64,000 nucleotides of DNA, taken from NCBI GenBank assembly GCA_022457155.1, contig JAJGOT010000319.1, forward strand, positions 164,001-228,000, in the 5' to 3' direction. Numbering within the stretch: the stretch's first letter is position 1; every line of letters begins with the position of its first letter. A program made the position numbers and the translations under genes. Of this stretch, positions 654 to 54,197 are shown piece by piece. Source of the DNA: Cladopsammia gracilis. Its lineage: Eukaryota > Cnidaria > Anthozoa > Scleractinia > Dendrophylliidae. Under the pieces are notes generated by a model. That model was not told where the DNA came from, did no database searches, and saw nothing but the letters and a program-made list of their open reading frames with translations.

Positions 654-3188
654 TCGACAAATTTGCCCCCGTCTCACAAGATTGAAACAATCAGCCAGCA
701 ATGGAGACTTGGTGACCTTGTTGACAAATGGACTTTAAGGCCCGTGGTGCAAGAATTTTGTGGCCAGTTCCCAGTCTACCGATTAGAGCTATTCTCACCT
801 GACTCAGTTACTGTGGTGCATGGAAACGAGGACGACACTGGCGCTGGTAAGCCTGTGCTATTATACATTCTATTTGTGCGGCAAATTAACATGAAACCTA
901 TAGATGGTTTTCACTCACGTGACCTTCAGTCCTGTGGGACTCAAATGACAAAGGCTATGGCGGCCATGTGGGTGCACATAACAAGAGGTTCATTAAAATA
1001 ATTTTGTAGGCGTGCACCAACACATCAACATGACCGCCGTGACGTAACGGAAAACCACCTACATTGCCTTGTTGTGGTTCATGTGCGGGATGTCGGTTCT
1101 TGAAGCCTGTTCATTAATTAAGGGGGGTGAAACTTAACTACAGTTTTAAAGTCGTTGCTAGGGACATTATTTCATGGTTATCATTTCTCACGTATCATAA
1201 TCTGCTAATATGGTGGGATTCAACTATGAAACTGAACGCAAGACATCACTAAATCGACATTGCACATGCGTACCTAGTACCAGTCCTCAACCGCGCATAA
1301 GAATGAAAAAGCGCAAAAACTCAAAGGAAACGAGATAAAAACCTGTTTTTTTTTGGTGAATCATAAGCAATTCAACGCTTTTTAAAATCTGTGCATGGAA
1401 TTACCGTTAGACGAAAAAAAAAGAAAACCTATTAAAGAAAATGTATTAAAATACACCTTTATGACGTCATAGCTTTTTCAATAACGCGAATTTTAAGAAA
1501 TCCATGCTACAGATTTTTTATTAAGATGTTCTTTAGCTGTTGGCATTGGTTTTATTGAAAAAAATGTAAGATGTTTGAGTGTTAAGGGTTTTATGTTCTG
1601 GTCACGTGACTTACCAAATATGGCTCTGACTCATGAAATTTAATGGACCTTTAAAGGAATGAACGTGACCAAACATCATAGCCGAGGAAGTAAAGAAACT
1701 CATTATATGACGTTTGGAATTCTTCCATAGCAACCACCTTGTAGTTAAGTTTCTCCCCCCCCCCCCCCTTAATATTGTGTTTATATGTTCTTGGGCAAAA
1801 TACATAACAATTCTTACAGTAGAGTGCAGGGGCGGATTTAGGAGAGGGCCGAGGGGGCCGAGTCCCCCCTTTTCTGTTTTTTCATTTTGTAATCAATCCC
1901 CTGCAGTGACTCTTACTTAAAGTCACCTTTACAAGGACAATCCCTAACGTTGAATTATAACACTCATAAATCCAATGGAGATGAGATGACTCTAGTTTAA
2001 GTCGCTCCCATACCACTCCGGTTTCTTGGATTTCGTTTGCAAAAAAAATTCGAGTTGATTCAAGTTATGTATTCATGTATTAAATATTTGAACATTTCTT
2101 GTTCAATGTGGGACCATGGCATTTTCCAAATTTCAGCGTCCAGAATGCACCTGATTGCATCTCAGACTAAGTACTTATACCGGGGAACATATCCGGATCC
2201 CTCTAGAAAGGAGCGCACATTGTCTCTCATACAAATTTCACAGCCCCTTTTTTCTAAAACTCCTGGATCTGCTTCTGGACAATGATATACTAGTCTGATA
2301 TTCCATCCTGCATTGTATATATTAAACCCATATAAGTGCAACTTGGGAGTCTCTCCGACCACGGGCAATTATCGAAAATTATGTTAATTATCGATTAGAA
2401 GAGGTAGACCAATAAGAGATTTTTTCCTTCAAATTTATCTCCCAGAACACAAACTAATAATGACATAATTTGGACCAAAGGGAAAGGCGCAAACGGGACG
2501 CGAAGCCCCATGCGAGGCGCCTACCCAAGAAACTTAGAAACTTAGATGGTGCGTTCTTTTGCATAAGAATTTATGAAAATAACATGGATGGATTTTACTA
2601 GAACTGATTTGTCTTAGGATGGGCATTTCTAGTAAACACATTTGAAAACATGGCCACCTTATTAGGCACTTGAAACACAGGAAGGCCAAGCGCTATATAT
2701 TGTCCTCCTGTACTTGAAATCGACTTGAGGGTCAGTGCCGTTAAATTTAATCCAAATTCAAAGCTCATGACTACCCACTGGCATCGGCACTCATAACACA
2801 GGAGGCCCAAACGTATCAAAAAGAGTTTGTATGTGCTTCATGTGCTTGAAATTTAACCCAAATTCAAACCTCACGACTGCCCATCACTTTGTAACCTACT
2901 TGGCGGCATATGTTTAATTTGGTAGCGAAACTAACGTTTGTTTTTGTAATATCTTACACAGAGAGAACAAGACGCCAGATTGAAGTTAATAATGAATTTC
3001 CACTCTGTAGCGACAGCATCCCCCATTGCAATCCTAATAACTGGAAATACAGTTGCCGTGTAGCAAGTCAGGCGTGTGTGTACTATGTGGTATGCAAAGT
3101 GGATCATATAAATACGATTGTCAGTTGTTCTACAATTACAATTCATCGCTATGACAGCCTTGTGTGTTGCACACCTTCGTGCTCATAA
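654..3188 (+). CDS. BRICHOS proprotein gene A, exons 5-6 (5' part outside window)
   Basis: Two coding exons are visible: 654-846 (after a polypyrimidine/AG acceptor, ending at a GTAAGC donor) and 2962-3188, ending in TAA. Joined with a phase-1 split codon, they give the C-terminal half of the BRICHOS domain (conserved Cys in EFCGQF), an acidic linker, the furin-type site RTRR and a 70-residue nine-Cys peptide ending CCTPSCS. Exons 1-4 must lie left of the window, by comparison with genes B-D. An AATAAA at 3468-3473 is a plausible poly(A) signal. The 112-residue reading frame that runs past the exon 5 donor is read-through into the intron, not a separate gene. Confidence 0.85.
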
Positions 3189-3467
3189 AGTGTTTGAGCG
3201 TTAAATTCGTTGCTGCCAGATTTGACTACAGTAGTACTAAAGGACGAAAAGAATAGAACAGGGAAATGAATTATGAAATCACCGTATAATTTAAAAATGA
3301 TTTTGGAAAATTAAAGCAGCTCTTTTTTTTATCATAAGTTTTAGCGACTTTTAAAGCTCAGTAATTTGAATTTTAAGCTATCAGATTATATAACTTACAA
3401 CAATTATCTCTATACTATGTTTTAAAGTTAAGAGAATGTTGTGATTTTATGCAGTAACAAGTTATTG

Positions 3468-3473
3468 AATAAA
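3468..3473 (+). terminator. Candidate poly(A) signal of gene A
   Basis: AATAAA about 280 nt after the stop codon, conserved in the other copies (16429, 31990, 54476). Confidence 0.45.
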
Positions 3474-3548
3474 AAATGTACTGTGTTTAAAAGACAAGCA
3501 ATTTTATTCTTCGCCTCTTTTATAAACCCAATTATTATGTGGCTGGCT

Positions 3549-3978: not shown

Positions 3979-3993
3979 ATGGCTGCAAATCAG
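3979..3993 (+). other. Possible short first coding exon (MAANQ) after the CCAAT array
   Basis: ATGGCTGCAAATCAG is followed by GTAAGG, a good donor, and preceded by a CCAAT array and moderately CpG-containing sequence, so this could be the start of an unrelated transcript. In units 2 and 3 the donor reads ATAAGG and would be dead. No downstream exon was found, so this stays weak. Confidence 0.25.
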
Positions 3994-4610: not shown

Positions 4611-4677
<67 letters not shown>

Positions 4678-5003: not shown

Positions 5004-5165
5004 GGCTGAATAAAAAGGTTTACACAAACGGTGAACTCTTCAGCAGAAGGATCCAAGGATACAACGCCACCACGTGAATTTGTAGATAAGTATAATAAAA
5101 AAAACGATGGGGCGAACTTCTTACTGGTCCTGACTGGTTTTACGTTTCGGCCTTCGGCCTTCTTC
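4503..5165. repeat. Direct duplication of about 360-bp module with TA tract
   Basis: The segment starting CAGGAGTCCAAAGAACTGC at 4503 starts again at 4863, including the TATA microsatellite, the AAAACGATGGGGCG stretch and the CGTTTCGGCCTT motif. It abuts the left arm of the PLE palindrome. Confidence 0.8.
4613..4674. repeat. (TA)n microsatellite
   Basis: Uninterrupted alternating TA. Similar tracts at about 6800-6840, 7073-7125, 17871-17943, 18174-18251, 18668-18731, 33171-33245 and 40181-40267 all sit beside PLE fragments or hammerheads, in keeping with the microsatellite-proximal habit of Penelope-like insertions. Confidence 0.95.
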
Positions 5166-10117: not shown

Positions 10118-12627
10118 ATGGTGAGTAGAAGTTCAGGTTCCTATCTGTTAAACATCTTTGCCTGTACTAGTCACTGAGTTTATATTTTTTATCGGCTTGT
10201 TAAAACATTACGTACCTGGTTTTCTGTCACAGATTTGAATGTTTCCTTGATACCTTCGTTTTCAGTCTAATTAACTTTGGGCTCCTTTTTCTCTCATCAG
10301 GGATTTTCTTCTGTTGTCGCATTTTTGATCTTGTTTGCTTGCATCGATCAGATGAGAGCTGCAATGGTGCCTAAGGTATTAATTTTAATAGTGTATATCA
10401 TTAACACCCTAAAACTAAAACGATCATACAATTTACGAGTAATTGATTAAAACTCCGTTTAGTTCCAATGTTTATCAAAAATTCGGCAGACAGCACTAAA
10501 CTTTCCGTCTTTTTTGGGGGTCTGAGTTCCGGATCCTTGAAGTCACGTTAATTTAGCGTGTCTTTTGAATGTCGATACCAACAAAATTAAAAAAAAAAGG
10601 GGAAAGAAAAGGAAAAAAGGGAAATTTTATTAGGAAACCACCATGTGCCGAGCACGGATGGCAAAAATTCGACAGGATTGACTGAATGGATCACGACGGG
10701 CGTCATTTGATTTCTGTGTGTTCAACAGAAAGCAAATTTAGGTCAATTTGTACAGCCAAGTAAACAAAGTGCTCTGTATAAATACCATTTGACACATGTT
10801 GACAATTAGAACTCCTTCCTTTTTATAGATGACATTGTACCACTAACTGTCTTGACATTCAGTAACATCAATATTCTTATTTTTCATTTTCATTACACAC
10901 GCAGTTCCCAGGGCAAAAAGTAATCACGGAGAAATTTAAACTGCACATTTTGGAGAGAAATGCCAAGTTTTACGAGGAAATTGAAATCGACGAGGAAAAT
11001 GACATTGCGTATTTCAAAGTGCCTCCGCACAACGATTTATCTCAGAACGACAAAATGTACGACTTCAGAATGGTAAGGAATATATACTTTATTACATCAT
11101 AATTAGAACCTTTGATGATAGAATTGAAACCCAGGCACTTTTGGTAGTTGCGTTTAGTCAAGTTAGCTGGTTCCAGCCGTAGGTACGATTCAAATGGAAA
11201 GTACCGGACAATAAGGTAATCCCGGGGGGGGGGTACTCCCTGTAATGGGCTATACGGGGATGCTCCGCCCGAAAGTGGTACCCTTTTGAGGCTGGAGGTA
11301 TATGAAAGGGTGGGATTTGTACGAGTTGAAGTATATGAAAGGGTAGGGATTTCACGAAGAATAGGAAAGGGTAGCTAAAACACGCCGTTGAATTATAAAA
11401 AAGGTAGGGAAAACTGCCATTTAAGTATTATAAAAAGGGCCTTTCAAAATATATCAAACAGACGCACGTAAAGGCTATATGAAAGGGGTACCATTTTCAA
11501 TGAAACGTATGTGAAAGGGGTGCCATTTTCAATGAAAGGTATATGAAAGGGGTACCTTTTCTGTCAAAAATGGTATATGAAAAAGTAAGGGTTTGGACCT
11601 CGGGGCGGAGCATCCCCGTACAAAACGTTGTTGAGTAGCCCCCCCCCCCCCCCCACTGATGAGAAGAAAAGATATAAATGTAAAGTATACAGTAGTGTTT
11701 TCACTTACGTCATATACCAAAACGGTTTATGGAATTGTAGAGAGTTTAAAACTACACATCTGGGCCAAATTTTGAAGCGCAAGAGCACTTCGTTCAAGAG
11801 TTATAGGCGAACGAGTTTTAGACAGTTTTAGTAAGAAATGCATGGAGCGGCCATCTTGGTGCCCCACTTAGGGACACCGACATGGCGGCCAAAAATTCAG
11901 TCTTAATTACACCAAAAATCTTATCACAAAATATTGTATTCACTACAAGTGCCATTAAATCGGCTTATAACCATCTTAAATAACTTTCAAATTGTTCAAT
12001 TTTGTTTATTTTCACGGCTTATCTGAAATAGCGTGACGAATTGCGTGACACATTCAAAACCTTTATAAATCGGAAGCAAAACATCGTTAAAACCTGAAGC
12101 TTTTTTGTGAAATATTACAACACTGGTATCCACATACCATGTTAGAAACAGTTTTGTAGGATGTATACTTTAGATTTTTGAAATTTTATGACGTCATGTG
12201 CAAATACTCTATACACTGGGTTAAACAATTAATTACCACGTCAGCTGCCATACACTTTTCATTAATTTTCAGAATAGAATCGTCTATTTCCGTTACCTTT
12301 TTGCTTGACAATATCATCTTTGGATAATGTAGGAGAGACAACGTAGATATTTTGTTTTTTATCCATTGAATGTAGCTACCGTGTTATAAAGTTCAAGTTG
12401 AAGTTTCAATTACTCTGACTATAATATTATTACAACGGCAACCGCCACTAGTCATTCGATCATTGCAGCATTGAATTGAAGTTGAAATGCCAAGAGTAAT
12501 GGCGTGTTTGTTTAACCAACAGAACATCTCAGTTAGACGTGTGAACAGTGATCGCGTTTGTCACATTACTCCACTGCCATCTGACCTACCAAGACCAAAC
12601 GAGCTATTAAAAGGACTGAAAATGGTA

Positions 12628-12708
<81 letters not shown>

Positions 12709-15700
12709 ACAAATTAACTCAGCAACATTGCTGGAGATGACACTGACCCTGGTCAGGTGGTAACAAGCCATCTTAGATCCCAAGGACTCTTCGGAGGATT
12801 CTTACAGTCCCTAACAAAACCGTCTTTTGGATAGTTACTGATCTTGTCTGCACACCAATCTGTTCCAGGTTGCCTCCCAATCTTCTAGGGATGGTTCCCA
12901 ATACTCCAATTATTATTATTACTAGCCGATATATAAAATAAAAAATATATTTTTGCCAAAAATGTAACTGAATTGTTTGAATAATAAGCATGAATTTGTG
13001 TTAAATATAAATATAGTACTAAATAGTACAGAATTCGCCGTTTTCCATTGCTTAGACTAATATTCGCTTCGCCCGGCAGGCAGTATAAGCCATTTTATGA
13101 GCAGAATTTATCCAAGCCTAATCACGTACGTGTGCAGCAATCACTATCTTCAAGATAACCTAGTTATTATTATTATTATTATCTTCATCTTAAACAACGT
13201 GTTCAACTTTCCACTGCACTACTAGAAGCCCCATACATAACATTTGTCTTAAAGTGTCTTGATAACGCTGCAAGTAAAGTTAATTTTTACTTTGTTTCTA
13301 TAAGTTCATTCCGAAACCTTTTTTACCGCTTTTATAAGCCGCATTTATAAGCCTACACAAAAACTGCCCAGGGCTTCACGGTACGGAAAGTGCTTTCTAC
13401 ATGACCAGATGGCAAATTTTCGGAAGGTGTAACATATTCAGCAGCTGGGTTAAAACTGTTCGATATCGATAAACACACATCATCACATATCTGTCAGTGT
13501 ACCTTGTAGATCGTTTCCTTTGCCTGTCTAAAGTTCCGAAACATCCCCAACGTCCATCGTATTTTCGCCACCTTATAAATTTACTCAGGTATAAAAAATA
13601 ACGTTATCCTCTTATTCCCTGTAGTCGACAAATTTGCCCCCGTCTCACAAGATTGAAACAATCAGCCAGCAATGGAGACTTGGTGACCTTGTTGACAAAT
13701 GGACTTTAAGGCCCGTGGTGCAAGAATTTTGTGGCCAGTTCCCAGTCTACCGATTGGAGCTATTCTCACCTGACTCAGTTACTGTGGTGCATGGAAACGA
13801 GGACGACACTGGCGCTGGTAAGCCTGTGCTATTATACATTCTATTTGTGTGGCAAATTAACATGAAACCTATAGATGGTTTTCACTCACGTGACCTTCAG
13901 TCCTGTGGGACTCAAATGACAAAGGCTATGGCGGCCATGTGGGTGCACATAACAAGTGGTTCATTAAAATTATTTTGTAGGCGTGCACCAACACATCAAC
14001 ATGACCGCCGTGACGTAACGGAAAATCACCTACATTGCCTTGTTATGGTTCATGTGCGGGATGTCGGTTCTTGAAGCCTGTTCATTAATTAAGGGGAGTG
14101 AAACTTAACTACAGTTTTAAAGTCGTTGCTAGGGACATTATTTCATGGTTAGCATTTCTCACGTATCATAATCTGCTAATATGGTGGGAACTATGAAACT
14201 GAACACAAGACATCACTAAATCGACATTGCACTTAGGTAACTAGTGTCAGTCCACAACCGCGCGTAAGAATGAAAAAGCGCAAAAACTCAAAGGAAACGA
14301 GATAAAAATCTGATTTTTTTGGTGAATCATAAGCAATTCAACGCTTTTTAAAATCTGTAGCATGGAATTACCGTTAGACGAAAAAAAAAGAAAACCTATT
14401 AAAGAAAATGTATTAAAATACACCTTTATGACGTCATAGCTTTTTCAATAACGCGAATTTCAAGAAATCCATGCTACAGATTTTTTATTAAGATGTTCTT
14501 TAGCTGTTGGCATTGGTTTTATTGGAAAAAAAATCTAAGATGTTTGAGTGTTAAGGGTTTTATGTTCTGGTCACGTGACTTAACAAATATGGCTCTGACT
14601 CATGAAATTTAATGGGACCTTTTTAAGAATGAACGTGACCAAACATCGTAGCCGAGGAAGTAAAGAAACTCATTATATGACGTTTGGAATTCTTCCATAG
14701 CAACCACCTTATAGTTAAGTTTCTCCCCCCTCAATATTGTGTTTATATGTTCTTGGGCAAAATACATTTCAATTCTTACAGTAGAGTGCAGGGGCGGATT
14801 TAGGAGAGGGCCGAGGGGGCCGCGTCCTCCCTTTTCTGTTTTTTCATTTTGTAATCAATCACCTGCAGTGACTCTTACTTAAAGTCACCTTTACAAGGAC
14901 AATCCCTAACGTTGGATTATAACACTCATAAATCCAATGGAGATGAGATGACTCTAGTTTAAGTCGCTCCCATACCACTCCGGTTTCTTGGATTTCGTTT
15001 GCAAAAAAAATTCGAGTTGATTCAAGTTATGTATTCATGTATTAAATATTTGAACATTTCTTGTTCAATGTGGGACCATGGCATTTTCCAAATTTCAGCG
15101 TCCAGAATGCACCTGATTGCATCTCAGACTAAGTACTTATACCGGGGAACATATCCGGATCCCTCTAGAAAGGAGCGCACATTGTCTCTCATACAAATTT
15201 CACAGCCCCTTCTTTCTAAAACTCCTGGATCTGCTTCTGGACACTGATATACTAGTCTGATATTCCATCCTGCATTGTATATATTAAACCCATATAAGTG
15301 CAACTTGGGAGTCTCTCCGACCACGGGCAATTATCGAAAATTATGTTAATTATCGATTAGAAGAGGTAGACCAATAAGAGATTTTTTCCTTCAAATTTAT
15401 CTCCCAGGACACAAACTAATAATGACATAATTTGGACCAAAGGGAAAGGCGCAAACGGGACGCGAAGCCCCATGCGAGGCGCCTACCCAAGAAACTTAGA
15501 AACTTAGATGGTGCGTTCTTTCGAATAAGAATTTATGAAAATAACATGGATGGATTTTACTAGAACTGATTTGTCTTAGGATGGGCATTTCTAGTAAACA
15601 CATTTGAAAACATGGCCACCTTATTAGGCACTTGAAACACAGGAAGGCCAAGCGCTATATATTGTCCTCCTGTACTTGAAATCGACTTGAGGGTCAGTGC

Positions 15701-16150
15701 CGTTAAATTTAATCCAAATTCAAAGCTCATGACTACCCACTGGCATCGGCACTCGTAACACAGGAGGCCCAAACGTATCAAAAAGAGTTTGTATGGGCTT
15801 CATGTGCTTGAAATTTATCCCAAATTCAAACCTCACGACTGCCCATCACTTTGTAACCTACTTGGTGGCATATGTTTAATTTGGTAGCGAAACTAACGTT
15901 TGTTTTTGTAATATCTTACACAGAGAGAACAAGACGCCAGATTGAAGTTAATAATGAATTTCCACTCTGTAGCGACAGCATCCCCCATTGCAATCCTAAT
16001 AACTGGAAATACAGTTGCCGTGTAGCAAGTCAGGCGTGTGTGTACTATGTGGTATGCAAAGTCGACCATATAAATACGATTGTCGGTTGTTCTACAATTA
16101 CCATTCATCGCTATGACAGCCTTGTGTGTTGCACACCTTCGTGCTCATAA
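10118..16150 (+). CDS. BRICHOS-domain secreted proprotein with furin-released Cys-rich peptide, gene B
   Basis: Six exons joined by consistent phases: 10118-10120 (ATG only), 10301-10375, 10905-11072, 12523-12624, 13625-13817 and 15924-16150, giving 255 residues. Residues 1 to about 23 form a signal peptide (GFSSVVAFLILFAC core). About 55-155 is a BRICHOS domain: conserved Asp79 in YDFRM, Cys95 in DRVCHITPLP and Cys152 in EFCGQFPVYRL, the last two expected to pair. RTRR at 182-185 fits the furin rule R-X-K/R-R; cleavage would release residues 186-255, with an N-terminal Gln and nine Cys. BRICHOS domains act as intramolecular chaperones in the secretory pathway, and annelid antimicrobial peptides such as arenicin share this pro-BRICHOS-peptide layout. 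A defence or venom-like role is inferred. The exon 4 start at AACATC gives the family's usual 12-residue spacing before Cys95. Confidence 0.88.
11219..11653. mobile_element. GGTATATGAAAGGG repeat-bearing inverted-repeat element in intron 3 of gene B
   Basis: Ends contain inverted poly-G/poly-C followed by TACGGGGATGCTCCGCCC. The interior is a series of degenerate GTATATGAAAGGGG repeats. The right end is shortened compared with the copy in gene C. Confidence 0.7.
12625..12712. repeat. (ATT)n microsatellite in intron 4 of gene B
   Basis: Starts within the donor of exon 4 (GTAATTATT), so the exon 4 donor is embedded in a microsatellite. Poly-Ile translations here are artefacts. Confidence 0.95.
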
Positions 16151-16428: not shown

Positions 16429-16434
16429 AATAAA
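16429..16434 (+). terminator. Candidate poly(A) signal of gene B
   Basis: AATAAA about 280 nt after the gene B stop codon, in conserved 3' flanking sequence. Confidence 0.45.
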
Positions 16435-25657: not shown

Positions 25658-28184
25658 ATGGTGAGTAGAAGTTCAGGTTCCTATCTGTTAAACATCTTTG
25701 CCTGTACTAGTCACTGAGTTTATATTTTTTATCGGCTTGTTAAAACATTACGTACCTGGTTTTCTGTCACAGATTTGAGAGTTTCCTTGATACCTTCGTT
25801 TTCAGTCTAATTAACTTTGGGCTCCTTTTTCTCTCATCAGGGATTTTCTTCTGTTGTCGCATTTTTGATCTTGTTTGCTTGCATCGATCAGATGAGAGCT
25901 GCAATGGTGCCTAAGGTATCAATTTTAATAGTGTATATCATTAACACCCTAAAACTAAAACGATCATACAATTTACGAGTAATTGATTAAAACTCCGTTT
26001 AGTTCCAATGTTTATCAAAAATTCGGCAGACAGCACTAAACTTTCCGTCTCTTTTGGGGGTCTGAGTTCCGGATCCTTGAAGTCACGTTAATTTAGCGTG
26101 TCTTTTGAATGTCGATACCAACAAAATTAAAAAAAAGGGAAAAAAAAAAAGGAAAAAAGGGAAATTTTATTAGGAAACCACCATGTGCCGAGCACGGATG
26201 GCAAAAATTCGACAGGATTGACTGAATGGATCACGACGGGCGTCATTTGATTTCTGTGTGTTCAACTGAAAGCAAATTTAGGTCAATTTGTACAGCCAAG
26301 TAAACAAAGTGCTCTGTATAAATACTATTTGACACATGTTGACAATTAGAACTCCTTCCTTTTTATAGATGACATTGTACCACTAACTGTCTTAACATTC
26401 AGTGTAACACCAATATTCTTATTTTTCATTTTCATTACACACGCAGTTCCCAGGGCAAAAAGTAATCACGGAGAAATTTAAACTGCACATTTTGGAGAGA
26501 AATGCCAAGTTTTACGAGGAAATTGAAATCGACGAGGAAAATGACATTGCGTATTTCAAAGTGCCTCCGCACAACGATTTATCTCAGAACGACAAAATGT
26601 ACGACTTCAGAATGGTAAGGAATATATACTTTATTACATCATAATTAGAACCTTTGATGATAGAATTGAAACCCAGGCACTTTTGGTAGTTGCGTTTAGT
26701 CAAGTTAGCTGGTTCCAGCCGTAGGTACGATTCAAAAGGAAAGTACCGGACAATAAGGTAATCCCGGGGGGGGGGGAGTACTCCCTGTAATGGGCTATAC
26801 AGGGATGCTCCGCCCGAAAGGGGTACCCTTTTGAGGCTGGAGGTATATGAAAGGGTGGGATTTTACGAGTTGAAGTATATGAAAGGGTAGGGATTTCAAG
26901 AAGAATAGGAAAGGGTAGCGAAAACACGCCGTTGAATTATAAAAAAAGGTAGGGAAAACTGCCATTTAAGTATTATAAAAAGGGCCTTTCAAAATATATC
27001 AAACAGACGCACGTAAAGGCTATATGAAAGGGGTACCATTTTCAATGAAAGGTATGTGAAAGGGGTGCCATTTTCAATGAAAGGTATATGAAAGGGGTAC
27101 CTTTTCTAACAAAAACGGTATATGAAAAAGTAAGGGTTTGGACCTCGGGGCGGAGCATCCCCGTACAAAACGTTGTTGAGTACCCCCCCCCCCCCCCCCC
27201 CGGGATGGTAATCAGTGCGACACTGATGAGAAGAAATGATATAAATGTAAAGTATACAGTAGTGTTTTCACTTACGTCATATACCAAAACGGTTTATGGA
27301 ATTGTAGAGAGTTTAAAACTACACATCTGGGCCAAATTTTGAAGCGCAAGAGCACTTCGTTCAAGAGTTATAGGCGAACGAGTTTTAGACATTTTTAGTA
27401 AGAAATGTATGGAGCGGCCATCTTGGTGCCCCACTTAGGGACACCGACATGGCGGCCAAAAATTCAGTCTTAGTTACACCAAAAATCTTATCACAAAATA
27501 TTGTATTCACTACAAGTGCCATTAAATCGGCTTATAACCATCTTAAATAACTTTCAAATTGTTCAATTTTGTTTATTTTCACGGCTTATCTGAAATAGCG
27601 TGACGAATTGCGTGACACATTTAAAACCTTTATAGATCGGAAGCAAAACATCGTTAAAATCTGAAGCTTTTTTGTGAAATATTACAACACTGGTATCCAC
27701 ATACCATGTTAGAAACAGTTTTGTAGGATGTATACTTTAGATTTTTGAAATTTTATGACGTCATGTGCAAATACTCTATACACTGGGTTAAACAATTAAT
27801 TACCACGTCAGCTGCCATACACTTTTCAGAGTAGAATCGTCTATTTCCGTTACCTTTTTGCTTGACAATATCATCTTTGGATAATGTAGGAGAGACAACG
27901 TAGATATTTTGTTTTTTATCCATTGAATGTAGCTACCGTGTTATAAAGTTCAAGTTTAAGCTTCAATTACTCTGACTATAATATTATTACAACGGCAACC
28001 GCCACTAGTCATTCGATCATTGCAGCATTGAATTGAAGTTGAAATGCCAAGAGTAATGGCGTGTTTGTTTAACCAACAGAACATCTCAGTTAGACGTGTG
28101 AACAGTGATCGCGTTTGTCACATTACTCCACTGCCATCTGACCTACCAAGACCAAACGAGCTATTAAAAGGACTGAAAATGGTA

Positions 28185-28253
<69 letters not shown>

Positions 28254-31200
28254 ACAAATTAACTAAGCAACATTGCTGCAGATGACACTGACCCTGGTCA
28301 GGTGGCAACAAGCCATCTTAGATCCCAAGGACTCTTCGGAGGATTCTTGCAGTCCCTGACAAAACCGTCTTTTGGATAGTTACTGATCTTGTCTGCACAC
28401 CAATCTGTTCCAGGTTGCCTCCCAATCTTCTAGGGATGGTTCCCAATACTCCAATTATTATTATTACTAGCCGATATATAAAATAGAAAATATATTTTTG
28501 CCAAAAATGTAACTGAATTGTTTGAATAATAAGCATGAATTTGTGTTAAATATAAATATAGTACTAAATAGTACAGAATTCGCCGTTTTCCATTGCTTAG
28601 ACTAATATTCGCTTCGCCCGGCAGGCAGTATAAGCCATTTTATGAGCAGAATTTATCCAAGCCTAGTCACGTACGTGCGCAGCAATCACTATCTTCAAGA
28701 TAACCTAGTTATTATTATTATTATCTTCATCTTAAAGAACGTGTTCAACCTTCCACTGCACTACTAGAAGCCCCATACATAACATTTGTCTTAAAGTGTC
28801 TTGATAACGCTGCAAGTAAGGTTAATTTTTACTTTGTTTCTATAAGTTCATTCCGAAACCTTTTTTACCGCTTTTATAAGCCGCATTTATAAGCCTACAC
28901 AAAAACTGCCCAGGGCTTCACGGACCGGAAAGTGTTTTCTACATGACCAGATGGTAATTTTTCGGAAGGTGTAACATATTCAGCAGCTGGGTTAAAACTG
29001 TTCGATATCGATAAACACACATCATCACATCTCTGACAGTGTACGTTGTACTGAGATCGTTTCCTTTGCCTGTCTAAAGTTCCGAAACATCCCCAACGTC
29101 CATCGTATTTTCGCCACCTTATAAGTTTACTCAGATATAAAAAACAACGTTATCCTCTTATTCCCTGTAGTCGACAAATTTGCCCCCGTCTCACAAGATT
29201 GAAACAATCAGCCAGCAATGGAGAGTTGGTGACCTTGTTGACAAATGGACTTTAAGGCCCGAGGTGCAAGAATTTTGTGGCCAGTTCCCAGTCTACCGAT
29301 TGGAGCTATTCTCACCTGACTCAGTTACTGTGGTGCCTGGAAACGAAGACGACACTGGCGCTGGTAAGCCTGTGCTATTATACATTCTATTTGTGCATAT
29401 TGTGGCAAATTAACATGAAACCTATACAAATGTAGATGGTTTTCACTCACGTGACCTTCAGTCCTGTGGGACTCAAATGACAAAGGCTATGGCGGCCATG
29501 TGGGTGCACATAACAAGTGGTTCATTAAAATTATTTTGTAGGCGTGCACCAACACATCAACATGACCGCCGTGACGTAACGTAAAATCACCTACATTGCC
29601 TTGTTATGGTTCATGTGCGGGATGTCGGTTCTTGAAGCCTGTTCATTAATTAAGGGGGGTGAAAGTTAACTACAGTTTTAAAGTCGTTGCTAGGGACATT
29701 ATTTCATGGTTATCATTTCTCACGTATCATAATCTGCTAATATGGTGGGAACTATGAAACTGAACACAAGACATCACTAAATCGACATTACACATGCATA
29801 ACTAGTATCAGTCCTCAACCGCGCATAAGAATGAAAAAGCGCAAAAACTCAAAGGAAACGAGATAAAAATCTGATTTTTTTGGTGAATCATAAGCAATTC
29901 AACGCTTTTTAAAATCTGTAGCATGGAATTACCGTTAGACGAAAAAAAAAGAAAACCTATTAAAGAAAATGTATTAAAATACACCTTTATGACGTCATAG
30001 CTTTTTCAATAACGCGAATTTTAAGAAATCCATGCTACAGATTTTTTATTAAGATGTTCTTTAGCTGTTGGCATTGGTTTTATTGGAAAAAAATGTAAGA
30101 TGTTTGAGTGTTAAGGGTTTTATGTTCTGGTCACGTGACTTAACAAATATGGCTCTGACTCATGAAATTTAATGGGACCTTTTAAAGAATGAACGTGACC
30201 AAACATCATAGCCGAGGAAGTAAAGAAACTCATTATATGACGTTTGGAATTCTTCCATAGCAACCACCTTGTAGCTAAGTTTCTCCCCCCTCAATATTGT
30301 GTTTATATGTTCTTGGGCAAAATACATTACAATTCTTACAGTAGAGTGCAGGGGCGGATTTAGGAGAGGGCCGAGGGGGCCGCGTCCCCCCTTTTCTGTT
30401 TTTTCATTTTGTAATCAATCCCCTGCAGTGACTCTTACTTAAAGTCACCTTTACAAGGACAATCCCTAACGTTGGATTATAACACTCATAAATCCAATGG
30501 AGATGAGATGACTCTAGTTTAAGTCGCTCCCATACCACTCCGGTTTCTTGGATTTCGTTTGCAAAAAAAATTCGAGTTGATTCAAGTTATGTATTCATGT
30601 ATTAAATATTTGAACATTTCTTGTTCAATGTGGGACCATGGCATTTTCCAAATTTCAGCGTCCAGAATGCACCTGATTGCATCTCAGACTAAGTACTTAT
30701 ACCGGGGAACATATCCGGATCCCTCTAGAAAGGAGCGCACATTGTCTCTCATACAAATTTCACAGCCCCTTCTTTCTAAAACTCCTGGATCTGCTTCTGG
30801 ACACTGATATACTAGTCTGATATTCCATCCTGCATTGTATATATTAAACCCATATAAGTGCAACTTGGGAGTCTCTCCGACCACGGGCAATTATCGAAAA
30901 TTATGTTAATTATCGATTAGAAGAGGTAGACCAATAAGAGATTTTTTCCTTCAAATTTATCTCCCAGGACACAAACTAATAATGACATAATTTGGACCAA
31001 AGGGAAAGGCGCAAACGGGACGCGAAGCCCCATGCGAGGCGCCTACCCAAGAAACTTAGAAACTTAGATGGTGCGTTCTTTTGAATAAGAATTTATGAAA
31101 ATAACATGGATTGATTTTACTAGAACTGATTTGTCTTAGGATGGGCATTTCTAGTAAACACATTTGAAAACATGGCCACCTTATTAGGCACTTGAAACAC

Positions 31201-31710
31201 AGGAAGGCCAAGCGCTATATATTGTCCTCCTGTACTTGAAATCGACTTGAGGGTCAGTGCCGTTAAATTTAATCCAAATTCAAAGCTCATGACTACCCAC
31301 TGGCATCGGCACTCGTAACACAGGAGGCCCAAACGTATCAAAAAGAGTTTGTATGGGCTTCATGTGCTTGAAATTTAACCCAAATTCAAACCTCACGACT
31401 GCCCATCACTTTGTAACCTACTTGGCGGCATATGTTTAATTTGGTAGCGAAACTAACGTTTGTTTTTGTAATATCTTACACAGAGAGAACAAGACGCCAG
31501 ATTGAAGTTAATACTGAATTTCCACTCTGTAGCGACAGCATCCCCCATTGCAATCCTAATAACTGGAAATACAGTTGCCGTGTAGCAAGTCAGGCGTGTG
31601 TGTACTATGTGGTATGCAAAGTAGACCGTATAAATACGATTGTCAGTTGTTCTACAATTACAATTCATCGCTATGACAGCCTTGTGTGTTGCACACCTTC
31701 TTGCTCATAA
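25658..31710 (+). CDS. BRICHOS-domain secreted proprotein with Cys-rich peptide, gene C
   Basis: Exons 25658-25660 (ATG), 25841-25915, 26447-26614, 28080-28181, 29171-29363 and 31484-31710; all splice sites and phases match gene B, giving an intact 255-residue product. The signal peptide equals that of B. Differences lie in exon 5 (WRVGDL for WRLGDL, PEVQEF for PVVQEF, VVPGN for VVHGN) and in the mature peptide (EVNTEF for EVNNEF, KVDRIN for KVDHIN). Both BRICHOS cysteines, RTRR and all nine mature-peptide cysteines are kept. Intron 3 contains a full inverted-repeat element (26761-27206). A candidate poly(A) signal is at 31990-31995. Function as for gene B. Confidence 0.88.
26761..27206. mobile_element. 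Complete inverted-repeat element in intron 3 of gene C
   Basis: Termini ATCCCGGGGGG and CCCCCGGGAT are perfect inverted repeats, flanked by a GGTA target duplication (26757-26760, 27207-27210). Gene D has the uninterrupted site AAGGTAATCAGTG at 48421, which fixes the insertion boundaries. The interior has tandem GTATATGAAAGGGG repeats. Non-coding. Confidence 0.8.
28182..28255. repeat. (ATT)n microsatellite in intron 4 of gene C
   Basis: Same location relative to the exon 4 donor as in gene B, shorter. Confidence 0.95.
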
Positions 31711-35100: not shown

Positions 35101-35330
35101 CAGAAAAATCGATTGCGTTCGATTGAGTTCGGTTTTCGAACTCAGTCGAACACAATCAGATGGACTGAGTTCGATTGAGTTCGATTTGTTCGATTGAATT
35201 CGATTTGTTCGGAAATCGAACTCACTGAAAGTACGGTGTTCGATTTCGTTCGATTGCCGAACTCAATCGAACTCAATCCACGGATTGAGTTCGATTGAGT
35301 TCGATTTCCGAACGTTCGATTTACTATGCC
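35100..35330. repeat. Palindromic TTCGATTGAGTTCGAT array
   Basis: About 230 bp made of TTCGATTGAG, GTTCGATTTG and their reverse complements (GAACTCAATCGAAC), in both orientations. It interrupts the GIY-YIG reading frame. The mixed orientation suggests a fold-back structure rather than a simple tandem repeat. Confidence 0.7.
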
Positions 35331-47323: not shown

Positions 47324-49654
47324 ATGGTGAGTAGAAGTTCAGGTTCCTATCTGTTAAACATCTTTGCCTGTACTAGTCACTGAGTTTATATTTTTTATCG
47401 GCTTGTTAAAACATTACGTACCTGGTTTTCTGTCACAGATTTGAGAGTTTCCTTGATACCTTCGTTTTCAGTCTAATTAACTTTGGGCTCCTTTTTCTCT
47501 CATCAGGGATTTTCTTCTGTTGTCGCATTTTTGATCTTGTTTGCTTGCATCGGTCAGATGAGAGCTGCAATGGTGCCTAAGGTATCAATTTTAATAGTGT
47601 ATATCATTAACACCCTAAAACTAAAACGATCATACAATTTACGAGTAATTGATTAAAACTCCGTTTAGTTCCAATGTTTATCAAAAATTCGGCAGACAGC
47701 ACTAAACTTTCCGTCTTTTTTGGGGGTCCGAGTTCCGGATCCTTGAAGTCACGTTAATTTAGCGTGTCTTTTGAATGTCGATACCAACAAAATTTAAAAA
47801 AAAAAGGGAAAAAAAGGAAAAAAAGGAAATTTTATTAGGAAACCATCATGTGCCGAGCACGGATGGCAAAAATTCGACAGGATTGACTGAATGGATCACG
47901 ACGGGCGTCATTTGATTTCTGTGTGTTCAATAGAAGGTAAATTTAGGTCAATTTGTACAGCCAAGTAAACAAAGTGCTCTGTATTAACACTATTTGACAC
48001 ATGTTGACAATTAGAACTCCTTCCTTTTTATAGATGACATTGTACCACTAACTGTCTTAACATTCAGTAACACCAATATTCTTATTTTTCATTTTCATTA
48101 CACACGCAGTTCCCAGGGCAAAAAGTAATCACGGAGAAATTTAAACTGCACATTTTGGAGAGAAATGCCAAGTTTTACGAGGAAATTGAAATCGACGAGG
48201 AAAATGACATTGCGTATTTCAAAGTGCCTCCGCACAACGATTTATCTCAGAACGACAAAATGTACGACTTCAGAATGGTAAGGAATATATACTTTATTAC
48301 ATCATAATTAGAACCTTTGATGATAGAATTGAAACCCAGGCGGCACTTTTGGTAGTTGCGTTTAGTCAAGTTAGCTGGTTCCAGCCGTAGGTACGATTCA
48401 AATGGAAAGTACGGGACAATAAGGTAATCAGTGCGACACTGATGAGAAGAAAAGATATAAATGTAAAGTATACAGTAGTGTTTTCACTTACGTCATATAC
48501 CAAAACGGTTTATGGAATTGTAGAGAGTTTAAAACTACACATCTGGGCCAAATTTTGAAGCGCAAGGGCACTTCGTTCAAGAGTTATAGGCGAACGAGTT
48601 TTAGACATTTTTAGTAAGAAATGTATGGAGCGGCCATCTTGTTGCCCCACTTAGGGACACCGACATGGCGGCCAAAAATTCAGTCTTAATTACACCAAAA
48701 ATCTTATCACAAAATATTGTATTCACTACAAGTGCCATTAAATCGGCTTATAACCATTTATAAAGCAAAAATAACTTTCAAATTGTTCAATGTTGTTTAT
48801 TTTCACGGCTTATCTGAAATAGCGTGACGAATTGCGTGACACTTCTTTATAAATCGGAAGCAAAACATCGTTAAAACCTGAAGCTTTTTTGTGAAAGATT
48901 ACAACACTGGTATCCACATACCATGTTAGAAACAGTTTTGTAGGATGTATACTTTAGATTTTTGAAATTTTATGACGTCATGTGCAAATCTCTATACACT
49001 GGGATGGGTTAAACAATTAATTACCACGTCAGCTGCCATACACTTTTCAGAGTGGAATCGTCTATTTCCGTTACCTTTTTGCTTGACAATATCATCTTTG
49101 GATAATGTAGGAGAGACAACGTAGATATTTTGTTTTTTATCCATTGAATGTAGCTACCGTGTTATAAAGTTCAAGTTTAAGCTTCAATTACTCTGACTAT
49201 AATATTATTACAACGGCAACCGCCACTAGTCATTCGATCATTGCAGCATTGAATTGAAGTTGAAATGCCAAGAGTAATGGCGTGTTTGCTTAACCAACAG
49301 AACATCTCAGTTAGACGTGTGAACAGTGATCGCGTTTGTCACATTACTCCACTGCCATCTGACCTGCCAAGACCAAACGAGCTATTAAAAGGACTGAAAA
49401 TGGTAATTATTATTATTATTATTAGAGTTATTTTACTTCATCTGTGAAACACTATCTAACTATCTAACAATTAGCGGAATTATAGTCTAAAAGTGCGTAC
49501 TATTCTACTAACTATTTCACAGATGAAGTAAAATCACTCTATTATTATTATTATAAGCAGTAAAAACTATCTGTATGCCATACAGTTAAAAGGAACACAG
49601 GGCGCATAGGCGTGACCTGTGCTCCAACTAGTGAGACTAGAGTTAAAAAATATA

Positions 49655-49736
<82 letters not shown>

Positions 49737-52700
49737 ACAAATTAACACAGCAACAATGCTGGAGATGACACTGACCCTGGTCAGGTGGCAACAAGCCACC
49801 TTAGATCCCAAGGACTCTTCGGAGGATTCTTGTAGTCCCTGACAAAACTGTCTTTTGGATATAGTTACTGATCTTGTCTGCACACCAATCTGTTCTAGGT
49901 TGCCTCCCAATCTTCTGGTGATGGTTCCCAATACTCCAATTATTATTATTATTACTAGAAATATATAAAATAAAAAATATATTTTTGCCAAAAATGTAAC
50001 TGAATTGTTTGAATAATAAGCGTGAATTTGTGTTAAATATAAATATAGTACTAAATAGTACAGAATTCGCCGTTTTCCATTGCTTAGACTAATATTCGCT
50101 TCGCCCGGCAGGCAGTATAAGCCATTTTATGAGCAGAATTTATCCAAGCCTAATCACGTACGTGCGCAGCAATCACTATCTTCAAGATAACCTAGTTATT
50201 ATTATTATTATCTTCATCTTAAAGAACGTGTTCAACCTTCCACTGCACTACTAGAAGCCCCATACATAACATTTGTTTTAAAGTGTCTTGATAACGCTGC
50301 AAGTAAAGTTAATTTTTACTTTGTTTCTATAAGTTCATTCCGAAACCTTTTTTACCGCTTTTATAAGCCGCATTTATAAGCCTACACAAAAACTGCCCAG
50401 GGCTTCACGGACCGGAAAGTGTTTTCTACATGACCAGATGGCAATTTTTCGGAAGGTGTAACATATTCAGCAGCTGGGTTAAAACTGTTCGATATCGATA
50501 AACACACATCATCACATCTCTGACAGTGTACCTTGTAGATCGTTTCCTTTGCCTGTCTAAGGTTCCGAAACATCCCCAACGTCCATCGTATTTTCGCCAC
50601 CTTATAAGTTTACTCAAATATAAAAAATAACGTTATCCTCTTATTCTCTGTAGTCGACAAATTTGCCCCCGTCTCACAAGATTGAAACAATCAGCCAGCA
50701 ATGGAGACTTGGTGACCTTGTTGACAAATGGACTTTAAGGCCCGAGGTGCAAGAATTTTGTGGCCAGTTCCCAGTCTACCGATTGGAGCTATTCTCACCT
50801 GACTCAGTTACTGTGGTGCATGGAAACGAGGACGACACTGGCGCTGGTAAGCCTGTGCTATTATACATTCTATTTGTGCATATTGTGGCAAATTAACATG
50901 AAACCTATAGATGGTTTTCACTCACGTGACCTTCAGTCCTGTGGGACTCAAACGACAAAGGCTATGGCGGCCATGTGGGTGCACATAACAAGAGGTTCAT
51001 TAAAATTATTTTGTAGGCGTGCACCAACACATCAACATGACCGCCGTGACGTAACGGAAAACCACCTACATTGCCTTGTTATGGTTCATTTGGGGGATGT
51101 CGGTTCTTGAAGCCTGTTCATTAATAAAGGGGAGTGAAACTTAACTACAGTTTTAAAGTCGTTGCTAAGGACATTATTTCATGGTTATCATTTCTCACGT
51201 ATCATAATCTGCTAATATGGTGGGAACTATGAAACTGAACACAAGACATCACTAAATCGACATTGCACTTAGGTAACTAGTGTCAGTCCCCAACCGCGCG
51301 TAAAAATGAAAAAGCGCAAAAACTCAAAGGAAACGAGAAAAAAATATGATTTTTTTGGTGAATCATAAGCAATTCAACGCTTTTTAAAATCTGTAGCATG
51401 GAATTACCGTTAGACGAAAAGAAAGAAAACCTATTAAAGAAAATGTATCAAAATACATCATTTTCAATAACGTGAATTTTAAGAAATCCATGCTACAGAT
51501 TTTTCATTAGGATGTTCTTAAAACCCTTTACATGCTAAACCCCTATATTTACGGGTTTTGGGGTTGTACACATGGAAGCCATTGTGACGTCATCAATTCA
51601 CACATCACAAGTTAACTTTGACATGCAGTTGATGCAGAATGGATAGATCTTTGCATTCATGTGTCAATTTTGGGAATCGGTCAAATTCTTCCGAAGTTAT
51701 GCAGAAAAAACCTGTTAAATTTTTGTTGCAAAATCATTGCAAAATTTGGCTCACCCATCGGACATTCTTCCAGATTCATTTCTCGGCTTCCTAAAAGGTT
51801 GGGTCAAAACTTTTCCAGCTGAAAGAAAGTGTATTTAATAATAGCCGAATATAGCAAGTAAAGAAAGGGAGGGAAAGATGAAAGGAAAGGAGAGAAGGAA
51901 AAAAAATCAAATGGGAAAACTTGTTTTTGTCTAAAGTATCGGTTTACACCTGCATCAAAGATAAAATTGATCGTTTTCACTCAGAGACTATATAGACACC
52001 TTGCCCCCGTTCACAAATGCACATTTTTAGCGCAGGAAATGCCCAATTTGGCCAAAAAAACCACGAAAACCCACTTTTTTTAACCCCAAAAAGCGTGTTT
52101 TGAGTGAAATTCCGCAATTAAATGATTAAGCCGTTGGCATTGGTTTTATTGGAAAAAAATGTAAGATGTTTCAGTCTTAAGGGGTTTTATGTTCTGGTCA
52201 CGTGACTTAACAAATATGGCTCTGACTCATGAAATTTAATGGCACCCTTGAAAGAATGAACGTGACCAAACATCAAAGCCGAGGAACTAAAGAAATTCAT
52301 TATATGACGTTTGGAATTCTTCCATAGCAACCACCTTGTAGTTAAGTTTCTCTCCCCTTACTGCGCCTTTCAATAACATGCGGAATTTGAGATTCAAATT
52401 TCCACCAACGGTTGCGTTTTACACTGCCGTCAATCATCTTAGCTTACCTCTCAGGAAACAAATCTTCACTTCAATGAGGTCAAAAGGTCACGTCCGTGCA
52501 TTTTGATTGGTAGATTTCGATCCATTTTGTTAGTTTCCTTTTTACATGGTCCGTTGGCTTTCGTATTAATTATAATTGACGGCAGGGAATAACGCAACCG
52601 TTGGTGGAGATTTGACTTTCAAATTCCGCATGTTATTGAAAGGCGCAGTAATATGTTCTTGGGCAAAATACTATACAATTCTTACAGTAGAGTGCAGGGG

Positions 52701-53338
52701 CGGATTTAGGAGAGGGCCGAGGGGGCCGCGTCCCCCTTTTCGGTTTTTTCATTTTTCACTTTATTCTCTGCGTACTTCCACGAACTTTTATTCTATCAAA
52801 TTAACAGCTTTCCCCTCGCCAGCACCCACTTTCACATTGAAACTTCTAGTATACTAGTCTGATATTCCATCCTGCATTGTACATATTAAACCCATAAGTG
52901 CGACTTGGGAGTCTCTCCGACCACGGGCAATTATCGATTAATCGTATCAATAACAAAATTCTCGATTGTGATTGGTCATCCACGCGCCTATTTCTTACAT
53001 AATTGGCGCGCGGTCACGTGGGTGTCCAATTACAGCTGTCCAATTACAACTTTTTGTAATTGGATAGCTGTAATTGGACACCTACGTTGCGCGCGCGTCA
53101 ATCAGGTGCACTTAAATTGGTTCTTTTTTCGCGGCTGTTTCCTCCTGCTTTCAAACTGAAAGAAAATATCCTTGACGTTTTGAGTACAAAAAACTCCACA
53201 TGCTGGATAGACTTTTTAATCTCGAATTTGGTTATTGATTCGATTAATTAGTAACTGAACTTCGTGTCGTACAATTCAGGGGTAATCGTGCTCGTAATAT
53301 ATTTCAAATCGTCCTCGCGCTACGCGCTCGGCCGATTT

Positions 53339-53379
<41 letters not shown>

Positions 53380-54197
53380 AGTCCAATTACTATTACTAAT
53401 TATCGATTAGCAGAGGTAGACCAATGAGAGATTTTTTCCTTTAAATTTATCTCCCGGGACACAAACTAATAATGACATAATATGGACCAAAGGGAAAGGC
53501 GCAAACCGGACGCGAAGCCCCATGCGAGGCGCCTACCTAAGAAACTTAGAAACTTAGATGGTGTGTTCTTTTGAATAAGAATTTATGAAAATAACATGGA
53601 CGGATTTTACTAGAACTGATTTGTCTTAGGATGGGCATTTCTAGTAAACACATTTGAAAACATGGCCACCTTATTAGGAACTTGAAACACAGGAAGGCCA
53701 AGCGCTATATATTGTCCTCCTGTCCTTGAAATCGACTTGAGGGTCAGTGCCGTTAAATTTAATCCAAATTCAAAGCTCATGACTACCCACTGGCATGGGC
53801 ACTTGTAACACAGGAGGCCCAAACGTATCAAAAAGAGTTTGTATGGACTTCATGTGCTTGAAATTTAACCCAAATTCAAACCTCACGACTGCCTATCACT
53901 TTGTAACCCACTTGGCGGCATATGTTTAATTTGGTAGCGAAACTAACGTTTGTTTTTGTAATATCTTACACAGAGAGAACAAGACGCCAGATTAAAGTTA
54001 GTGAATTTCCACTCTGTAGCAACAGCATCCCCCAATGCAATCCTAATGACTGGCAATACAGTTGCCGTGTAGCAAGTCAGGCGTGTGTGTACTATGTGGT
54101 ATGCAAACTGGATCAGATAAATGAGATTGTCGGTTGTTCTAAACTTACAATTCATCGCTATGACAGCCTTGTGTGTTGCACACCTTCGTGCTCATAA
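47324..54197 (+). CDS. BRICHOS-domain secreted proprotein with diverged Cys-rich peptide, gene D
   Basis: Exons 47324-47326 (ATG), 47507-47581, 48110-48277, 49301-49402, 50654-50846 and 53974-54197; intact, 254 residues. The signal peptide differs from B by one residue (ACIGQM for ACIDQM). The precursor domain is nearly unchanged, but the mature peptide has many replacements: QIKVSEF (with one codon lost) for QIEVNNEF, CSNSIPQC for CSDSIPHC, NDWQYSC for NNWKYSC, KLDQINEIVGC for KVDHINTIVSC, SKLTIH for STITIH. All nine cysteines and the last 14 residues (HRYDSLVCCTPSCS) are unchanged. Intron 5 carries several insertions. The AATAAA is at 54476-54481. It is the last complete member and the nearest to the convertase gene. 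Confidence 0.88.
49655..49738. repeat. (ATT)n microsatellite in intron 4 of gene D
   Basis: In gene D the array next to the donor is short (49405-49423) and a second, long array follows a roughly 230-bp insertion. Part of that insertion (49429-49540) is a hairpin with AGTTATTTTACTTCATCTGTG arms. Confidence 0.9.
51517..52131. other. Insertion in intron 5 of gene D
   Basis: About 615 bp absent from the corresponding intron of genes A-C (compare 30055-30070). No inverted ends, target duplication or coding frame recognised. Confidence 0.6.
52358..52651. mobile_element. 294-bp MITE in intron 5 of gene D
   Basis: Inverted ends of about 70 bp starting TTACTGCGCCTTTCAATAAC, with TTGACGGCAG-like inner parts. 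Absent from genes A-C. It replaces about 15 bp of the ancestral sequence, and no clear target duplication is seen. Confidence 0.75.
52926..53405. other. Insertion with hairpin in intron 5 of gene D
   Basis: Not present in genes A-C. Includes a small hairpin (about 53024-53078, TCCAATTACAG with CTGTAATTGGA). No gene seen. Confidence 0.6.

What the first reader, a model, noticed from the sequence alone, without database searches (positions are those of the whole stretch)
654..54197. Tandem array of BRICHOS proproteins that release nine-cysteine peptides
Four near-identical gene copies encode signal peptide, BRICHOS domain, RTRR and a 69-70 residue Cys-rich peptide. BRICHOS precursors that carry antimicrobial peptides are known from annelids (arenicin type), but those peptides are short beta-hairpins. 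A nine-Cys, 70-residue cargo in an expanded cluster looks like a different effector family. Gene structure is read directly from splice sites; the effector role is inferred.
Basis: partly seen in the sequence, partly recalled or inferred. Interest (0 to 1): 0.85.

Follow-up and report, generated by a model that had tools for sequence, protein, structure and literature searches.

The report
Coral-type BRICHOS nine-cysteine peptide cluster
A genome, apparently of a coral or sea anemone, carries a row of near-identical genes for secreted precursors that probably release a cysteine-rich peptide, likely for defence; relatives turn up in several corals and anemones, and what the peptide does is still to be tested.

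Summary
The window carries three complete six-exon genes and the last two exons of a fourth. Each complete gene encodes a hydrophobic N-terminus, a BRICHOS domain, the convertase site RTRR and a 69-70 residue, nine-cysteine peptide in its own last exon. An inverted, truncated fifth copy (exons 1-2) lies at 57.7-58.0 kb. Homologues with this layout occur in named corals (Oculina, Desmophyllum, Pocillopora; Porites and Montipora in part) and sea anemones (Actinia, Exaiptasia). Seven relatives sit on contigs of about 1 kb, too short for introns, so the exons are joined there. Twenty of 22 cargos, four of them the window's own, have nine Cys in one spacing. The cargo has no credible Pfam or PDB match and is near neutral here, unlike classic antimicrobial peptides. 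Between species it varies more than the BRICHOS part, the reverse of the published annelid alvinellacin case. The kind is known: annelid BRICHOS precursors with 11-Cys, non-cationic cargos (2023), and heat-induced BRICHOS proteins in corals. Best reading: a furin-released, disulfide-rich host-defence peptide. Architecture is well supported; release and antimicrobial function are inferred. New variant of a known kind.

The parts
654..846 (+). Copy A exon 5 (C-terminal part of BRICHOS); upstream exons lie outside the window
2962..3188 (+). Copy A exon 6 (RTRR + 70-residue nine-Cys cargo, stop)
10118..10120 (+). Copy B exon 1 coding part: the start Met alone (ATG|GTGAGT)
   Evidence: in-frame stop upstream
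10301..10375 (+). Copy B exon 2 (hydrophobic N-terminus, read by eye as signal peptide)
10905..11072 (+). Copy B exon 3 (linker and start of BRICHOS)
12523..12624 (+). Copy B exon 4 (BRICHOS, first conserved Cys)
13625..13817 (+). Copy B exon 5 (BRICHOS, second conserved Cys)
15924..16150 (+). Copy B exon 6: RTRR convertase site and cargo (cargo codons 15938-16147)
25658..31710 (+). Copy C gene: exons 25658-25660, 25841-25915, 26447-26614, 28080-28181, 29171-29363, 31484-31710 (cargo 31498-31707)
47324..54197 (+). Copy D gene: exons 47324-47326, 47507-47581, 48110-48277, 49301-49402, 50654-50846, 53974-54197 (cargo 53988-54194, 69 residues, the most divergent cargo)
57718..57989 (-). Inverted truncated fifth copy: exon-1-like ATG|GTATGT at 57989-57987 and intact signal-peptide exon 57792-57718; no exons 3-6 found on that strand
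   Evidence: tblastn; sequence and blastn
16429..16434 (+). Polyadenylation signal AATAAA, 279 bases past the stop of copy B (279-280 in A, C and D)

Best explanation
This is a tandem cluster of genes for secreted BRICHOS proproteins of a hexacoral (stony coral / sea anemone group, inferred from the named relatives). The N-terminal signal sends the precursor into the secretory pathway. [quoted passage not shown] A furin-like convertase then cuts after R-x-[K/R]-R and frees a 66-77 residue peptide with nine conserved cysteines, which works outside the cell, most likely as a host-defence or microbe-controlling peptide. The odd cysteine count suggests a covalent dimer. Shown: gene structure, layout, conservation across corals and anemones, intron-free relatives. 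Inferred from the BRICHOS family: chaperoning and cleavage. Inferred only by analogy: the defence role and dimerisation.
For: Three whole six-exon copies with intact frames. BRICHOS in 15 of 16 aligned relatives at E up to 0.1, and the profile matches solved ITM2B BRICHOS (8rnu, E 0.0026). Full-length homologues in named Oculina, Exaiptasia and Actinia, and partial, fused or isoform models in Porites, Desmophyllum, Montipora and Pocillopora. Seven relatives (P0002, P0003, P0004, P0007, P0011, P0013, P0017) encode 226-275 aa on contigs of at most 922-1072 bases, which leaves no room for introns like these. Twenty of 22 cargos, four of them from the window, have nine Cys with spacing C-x6-11-C-x8-C-x6-C-x5-C-x9-15-C-x10-12-CC-x3-C. 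R-x-[K/R]-R precedes the cargo in 20 of 22 (exceptions P0018, which has RNTR by eye, and P0021, whose gene model lacks that part). Between species the cargo varies more than the BRICHOS region: mean 47% against 59% identity, lower in 101 of 117 pairs. Gene layout parallels preproalvinellacin, an antimicrobial precursor family: five introns, peptide in the last exon, tandem duplication, recombination between copies (PMC5431198, abstract and passages).
Against: The cargo is not cationic in the window (net K+R-D-E of -1, -1, 0 and 0) and runs from -2 to +7 in the family, unlike classic antimicrobial peptides. No antimicrobial family or fold was matched. Among copies A, B and C the cargo changes little (1-3 nonsynonymous against 3 synonymous), which looks like ordinary constraint; only D is divergent. 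No peptide has been detected here and cleavage was not tested. The nine-Cys pattern is so constrained that receptor binding is as plausible as membrane attack.
Confidence: 0.6

Rival explanations
1. The released peptide is a signalling ligand (cytokine-like, in the manner of Spaetzle, neurotrophins or TGF-beta): a convertase-released, disulfide-rich beta domain with an odd Cys that links two chains, binding a host receptor.
For: Nine Cys in 20 of 22 cargos with near-neutral charge in the window; Foldseek's top three hits for the cargo model are neurotrophins and Spaetzle, with activins further down among many unrelated chains.
Confidence: 0.2
2. The BRICHOS domain itself is the product that matters: a secreted stress chaperone against misfolding in heat, with the C-terminus only a tail that may stay attached.
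For: BRICHOS proteins are enriched among genes changing at least ten-fold in heated Stylophora and Balanophyllia (up to 380-fold in Stylophora), and chaperoning was suggested (PMC5299404, passages); two are up more than five-fold in heated Montipora capitata (PMC8590396, passage).
Against: A furin-type site and a kept nine-Cys cargo in 20 of 22 cargos need an explanation that a pure chaperone does not give. Whether the heat-induced genes of those papers belong to this family was not tested.
Confidence: 0.12
3. The peptide is a venom or predator-deterrent component rather than an antimicrobial.
For: Cnidarians make many Cys-rich toxins (general knowledge); the cargo of copy D differs from the others.
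Against: No credible match to a Pfam family or solved structure; no evidence on cell type was looked at.
Confidence: 0.08

Closest known systems
HfBRI-75 and HfBRI-91 of Heteromastus filiformis (PMC10745061; one section read whole, passages of others)
   Same: BRICHOS precursor, dibasic cleavage site, long cargo (75 and 91 residues), odd and high Cys number (11), not cationic, no known domain, poor AlphaFold model
Preproalvinellacin of Alvinella (PMC5431198; abstract, outline and passages)
   Same: Secreted BRICHOS precursor, five introns, peptide in the last exon, tandem multigene family with recombination between copies
   Different: Short two-disulfide hairpin cargo that is monomorphic in A. 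pompejana while BRICHOS diversifies; here the cargo is long and, between species, varies more than the BRICHOS region
Arenicin, capitellacin, nicomicin and AmBRI-44a BRICHOS-related peptides (passages in PMC6265681 and PMC11767717); AmIMP1/2, Cys-rich BRICHOS-related proteins of Arenicola (passage in PMC10745061)
   Same: Signal or membrane helix, BRICHOS, C-terminal peptide; convertase site in those described
   Different: Arenicin, capitellacin and nicomicin are short hairpin or helical peptides; AmBRI-44a has four disulfides (an even count); AmIMP1/2 are described as integral membrane proteins
Coral BRICHOS proteins in the literature (PMC5299404, PMC8590396, PMC12960093; passages only)
   Same: BRICHOS proteins of corals; one paper calls two of Pocillopora acuta settlers predicted antimicrobial peptides
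   Different: In the passages seen none describes a nine-Cys cargo, its exon or a tandem cluster; whether they are this same family was not tested
ITM2B/BRI2 (solved BRICHOS 8rnu)
   Same: BRICHOS sequence match
   Different: Transmembrane protein with a 23-residue furin product (PMC9714404, passage)

Membership tests
BRICHOS proproteins | BRICHOS domain by profile | tested here: met
   15 of 16 aligned relatives at E up to 0.1; the miss is P0020, a model without the exon-4 part, and P0013 is below the curated cut-off; window copy itself 21.5 bits, below the cut-off of 25
BRICHOS proproteins | Two conserved Cys in the domain | tested here: met
   C95 and C152 invariant among the 7 aligned; in the 16 the second is invariant and the first nearly so
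BRICHOS proproteins | N-terminal signal or membrane helix | tested here: inconclusive
   Hydrophobic stretch read by eye; no signal-peptide program was available
BRICHOS proproteins | Convertase site before the C-terminal peptide | tested here: met
   R-x-[K/R]-R in 20 of 22
BRICHOS proproteins | Beta-prone C-terminal peptide | tested here: inconclusive
   Four strands predicted, but pLDDT 68 and pTM 0.39
BRICHOS proproteins | Chaperone activity and actual cleavage | not testable with these tools
   Needs protein work
BRICHOS-related antimicrobial peptides | Cationic mature peptide | tested here: not met
   Net -1, -1, 0, 0 in the window; -2 to +7 in relatives
BRICHOS-related antimicrobial peptides | Antimicrobial activity | not testable with these tools
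   No assay
Cystine-knot growth factors | Knot cysteine order and fold | tested here: not met
   Spacing differs from the recalled knot order; no significant fold match, on a weak model
HfBRI-75/91 family | 11-Cys cargo homologous in sequence | not tested
   Sequences not held; Cys number differs

The most novel reading that the evidence does not exclude
Corals and sea anemones share an undescribed class of nine-cysteine secreted effectors, released as disulfide-linked dimers from BRICHOS precursors and diversifying in tandem arrays, and the strongly heat-induced 'BRICHOS chaperones' reported in corals are in fact the precursors of these peptides, so that coral heat stress deploys a peptide arsenal.
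Probability: 0.3. Interest if true: 0.8.

Novelty: new variant of a known kind. Interest (0 to 1): 0.58.

Why it matters
BRICHOS genes are among the strongly heat-induced genes in two published coral studies (passages), where their role is put down to chaperoning or left open. If they encode precursors of a conserved nine-Cys peptide, the question of what BRICHOS does in corals becomes directly testable: look for one peptide, starting after RxRR, in coral mucus. It also shows the BRICHOS-plus-Cys-rich-cargo design in Cnidaria as well as annelids, with the opposite balance of variation between species from the annelid alvinellacin case.

Tried and rejected
Positive selection on the cargo: D against A, B and C has 13, 12 and 13.5 nonsynonymous changes over about 165 sites (7.9, 7.3 and 8.2%) against 3.4, 3.2 and 3.1% in flanking non-coding bases (one-sided Fisher 0.012, 0.017 and 0.006, with flank counts). 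I do not claim selection. The three tests share copy D and were made after the fact. The flanks used are the last 423 bases of intron 5 and 450 bases past the stop; intron 5 b and c and the outer 3' flank were left out because D does not align there (18-42% apparent difference). Synonymous changes in B-D and C-D are equally raised (7.2 and 8.3%), with only A-D having none (0 against 13 nonsynonymous). Among A, B and C synonymous change exceeds nonsynonymous. A divergent donor by gene conversion or relaxed constraint would do as well.

Three-finger/Ly6 fold, from the terminal CC-x3-C: considered by eye (recalled resemblance), but no Pfam match, no PDB match and no fold match. Five Pfam families matched one cargo each at E 0.029 or worse in the 18-member scan and two ribonuclease-inhibitor chains matched at E 3.9 and 4.5; taken as chance. 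Mre11_acc_DNA_cap matched 2 of 16 precursors (best 3.8e-5) and was not followed. Four further families matched one precursor each at E 0.01-0.063; taken as chance.

Cargo outside BRICHOS: the cargo-only search gave two short proteins, both with the convertase site just before the cargo, as in an exon 6; no stand-alone secreted version was found. The search covered only proteins of 0.55-1.75 times the cargo length (78 candidates).

Bacterial and viral carriers: none encoding a relative in genome contigs or viral contigs with the single copy-B cargo. Full-precursor model from 5 rows: pLDDT 39, unusable. A weak precursor match at 39635-39769 (30%, E 0.027) lies in an ORF with a GIY-YIG match and was taken as chance. 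Window species: not identified; hexacoral is inferred from relatives. The tree does not resolve where the window copies sit (8 of 17 inner branches open).

Rows dropped before the Cys count: P0005, P0006, P0015, P0016, P0019, P0022, P0023, P0024 (no complete in-frame cargo) and the first, incomplete cargo of P0010. Before the identity count: P0020 by hand, and rows without enough of both parts.
Full report
What is there. The window holds a tandem array with unit offsets of about 13.0, 15.5-15.6 and 21.5-22.5 kb. Three units (B, C, D) each carry one complete gene of six coding exons; for the first unit (A) only exons 5 and 6 are inside the window. Exon 1 codes only the start Met, in the context AAAAAGATG|GTGAGT, with an in-frame stop 21 bases upstream, and AATAAA lies 279-280 bases after each stop. 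The proteins are 255, 255 and 254 aa. They read: hydrophobic N-terminus, linker, BRICHOS, RTRR, then 70, 70 and 69 residues with nine Cys. The introns are GT..AG. Copies A, B and C differ from each other by 0-3.1% in the stretches compared. D differs by 0.5-4.4% from them where it aligns outside exon 6, by 5.8-7.6% in exon 6, and does not align in parts of intron 5 and the outer 3' flank. The pattern is mosaic: A and B differ by 0.15% in the sampled part of intron 4 but 3.1% in the first part of intron 5, which suggests exchange between copies (inference).

A fifth, unreported piece: on the minus strand at 57989-57718 there is an exon-1-like ATG with donor and an intact signal-peptide exon (76-80% protein identity, E 2.5e-6 to 5e-7). 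One 40-base stretch further upstream matches the promoter side of the other copies. The tblastn searches found no exons 3-6 for it. It is best read as an inverted, truncated copy.

Is it BRICHOS? The window protein alone is marginal: Pfam 21.5 bits, cut-off 25; ITM2B structure E 0.031. The family settles it: 15 of 16 aligned relatives match Pfam BRICHOS at E up to 0.1, best 9.1e-12; the miss is P0020, whose model lacks the exon-4 part, and P0013 scores 20.7 bits, below the cut-off. The profile matches ITM2B at E 0.0026, and the two BRICHOS cysteines are kept.

Relatives. Search with copy B gave 6 proteins; with a 7-row profile, 24 including those 6; with an 18-row cargo profile, 2 more. Named sources are Porites lobata, Oculina patagonica, Desmophyllum pertusum, Montipora capricornis, Pocillopora verrucosa (stony corals), Exaiptasia diaphana and Actinia tenebrosa (sea anemones). 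Oculina, Exaiptasia and one Actinia model are full length; Porites stops early in the cargo, the Montipora models leave the cargo frame, Pocillopora lacks the exon-4 part, Desmophyllum is a fused model. Seven unnamed full or nearly full precursors of 226-275 aa lie on contigs of at most 922-1072 bases (P0002, P0003, P0004, P0007, P0011, P0013, P0017). Short predicted proteins that stop at single exons (P0006 and P0022 exon 5, P0023 and P0024 exon 4, P0025 exon 6) break at the same places as the window's splice sites (read by eye). The Desmophyllum model P0010 holds two BRICHOS-cargo units, consistent with tandem copies there too.

The cargo. Of 22 cargos examined (18 from relatives, 4 from the window), 20 have nine Cys in the order C-x6-11-C-x8-C-x6-C-x5-C-x9-15-C-x10-12-CC-x3-C; Actinia P0014 has ten and P0018 seven. 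In the alignment P0018 lacks the third and the eighth together, which predicts that these two pair. An odd count leaves one free thiol or a bond between chains; that is inference. Net charge (K+R-D-E) is -1, -1, 0 and 0 in the window and -2 to +7 in relatives. Nothing in Pfam or the PDB by sequence matches credibly. An AlphaFold model of the cargo from 21 rows reaches pLDDT 68 and pTM 0.39, with four strands. Foldseek's top three hits are neurotrophins and Spaetzle at E 0.43 or worse, not significant, with many unrelated chains below; VIA-align gave none. The fold is unknown.

Variation. Between species the cargo is less conserved than the linker-plus-BRICHOS region: mean identity 47% against 59%, lower in 101 of 117 pairs among 16 sequences (residues 195-255 against 33-165 of copy B; pairs between window copies left out). 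This is the reverse of the Alvinella report, where BRICHOS diversifies and the peptide is fixed (PMC5431198, abstract and passages). Between copies, D differs from A, B and C by 1-3 nonsynonymous changes in the proregion (for A, exon 5 only) but 12-13.5 in the cargo. That rests on copy D alone: among A, B and C the cargo has 1-3 nonsynonymous and 3 synonymous changes a pair, as under ordinary constraint. The D cargo's nonsynonymous rate exceeds flanking non-coding divergence (7.3-8.2% against 3.1-3.4%), but synonymous sites are raised too in two of the three comparisons, so positive selection is not shown.

How it works. By the established logic of BRICHOS proproteins (PMC9714404, passage; PMC10745061, passages and one section), the domain chaperones a beta-prone, Cys-containing C-terminus, and a furin-like convertase releases it. 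Layout, site and cysteines fit. Release, folding help and target are inferred. I take host defence as most likely because tandem arrays, exchange between copies and variable cargos are usual for defence peptides (general knowledge, and the abstract of PMC5431198), and because the annelid BRICHOS cargos with measured activity that I saw described are antimicrobial; vertebrate BRICHOS products such as that of BRI2 are not described so in the passages seen. The near-neutral charge is the main point against a membrane-lytic peptide.

What is known. BRICHOS with long Cys-rich, non-cationic cargos is published for an annelid (HfBRI-75/91, 11 Cys). Coral BRICHOS proteins are published as a sizeable, heat-induced set (238 domain sequences from 15 species; up to 380-fold; PMC5299404, passages; PMC8590396, passage), and two in Pocillopora acuta settlers are called predicted antimicrobial peptides (PMC12960093, passages). 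In the searches (open-licence PubMed Central only) I saw no description of a nine-Cys BRICHOS cargo or of this gene structure in cnidarians. That is a statement about listings and passages seen, not about all literature; the supplements of the coral papers, where their alignments lie, could not be read. Hence: new variant of a known kind.

Limits. The window's own genome could not be searched (genome search did not complete), so the full cluster size and the species are unknown. That some copies, such as A and B, are uncollapsed haplotypes cannot be excluded. No signal-peptide program was available.

Noticed in passing
window 57718-57989 (-): Inverted truncated copy of the gene's 5' end: exon-1-like ATG with donor and an intact signal-peptide exon, without exons 3-6.
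   Followed up: partly
window 12625, 28182, 49403: The donor of intron 4 runs straight into an (ATT)n microsatellite (long in B and C, short in D), so repeat length changes could affect splicing of the BRICHOS exon.
   Followed up: no
window 5097-6780: An inverted repeat with 741-base, 100% complementary arms and a 202-base spacer, overlapping an ORF (5835-6332) that matches GIY-YIG (E 1.3e-5); weaker GIY-YIG matches at 34427-35197 and 39040-39804. Probably mobile-element remains.
   Followed up: partly
window 19999-21612: A 537-codon open frame without Pfam match at E 0.01, between copies B and C.
   Followed up: partly
P0020 (Pocillopora verrucosa isoform X2), P0015 and P0019 (Montipora capricornis isoforms X3 and X4): Annotated isoforms that lack the exon-4 part or leave the cargo frame, hinting at alternative splicing that would make BRICHOS-deficient or cargo-less products, or at annotation errors.
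   Followed up: no
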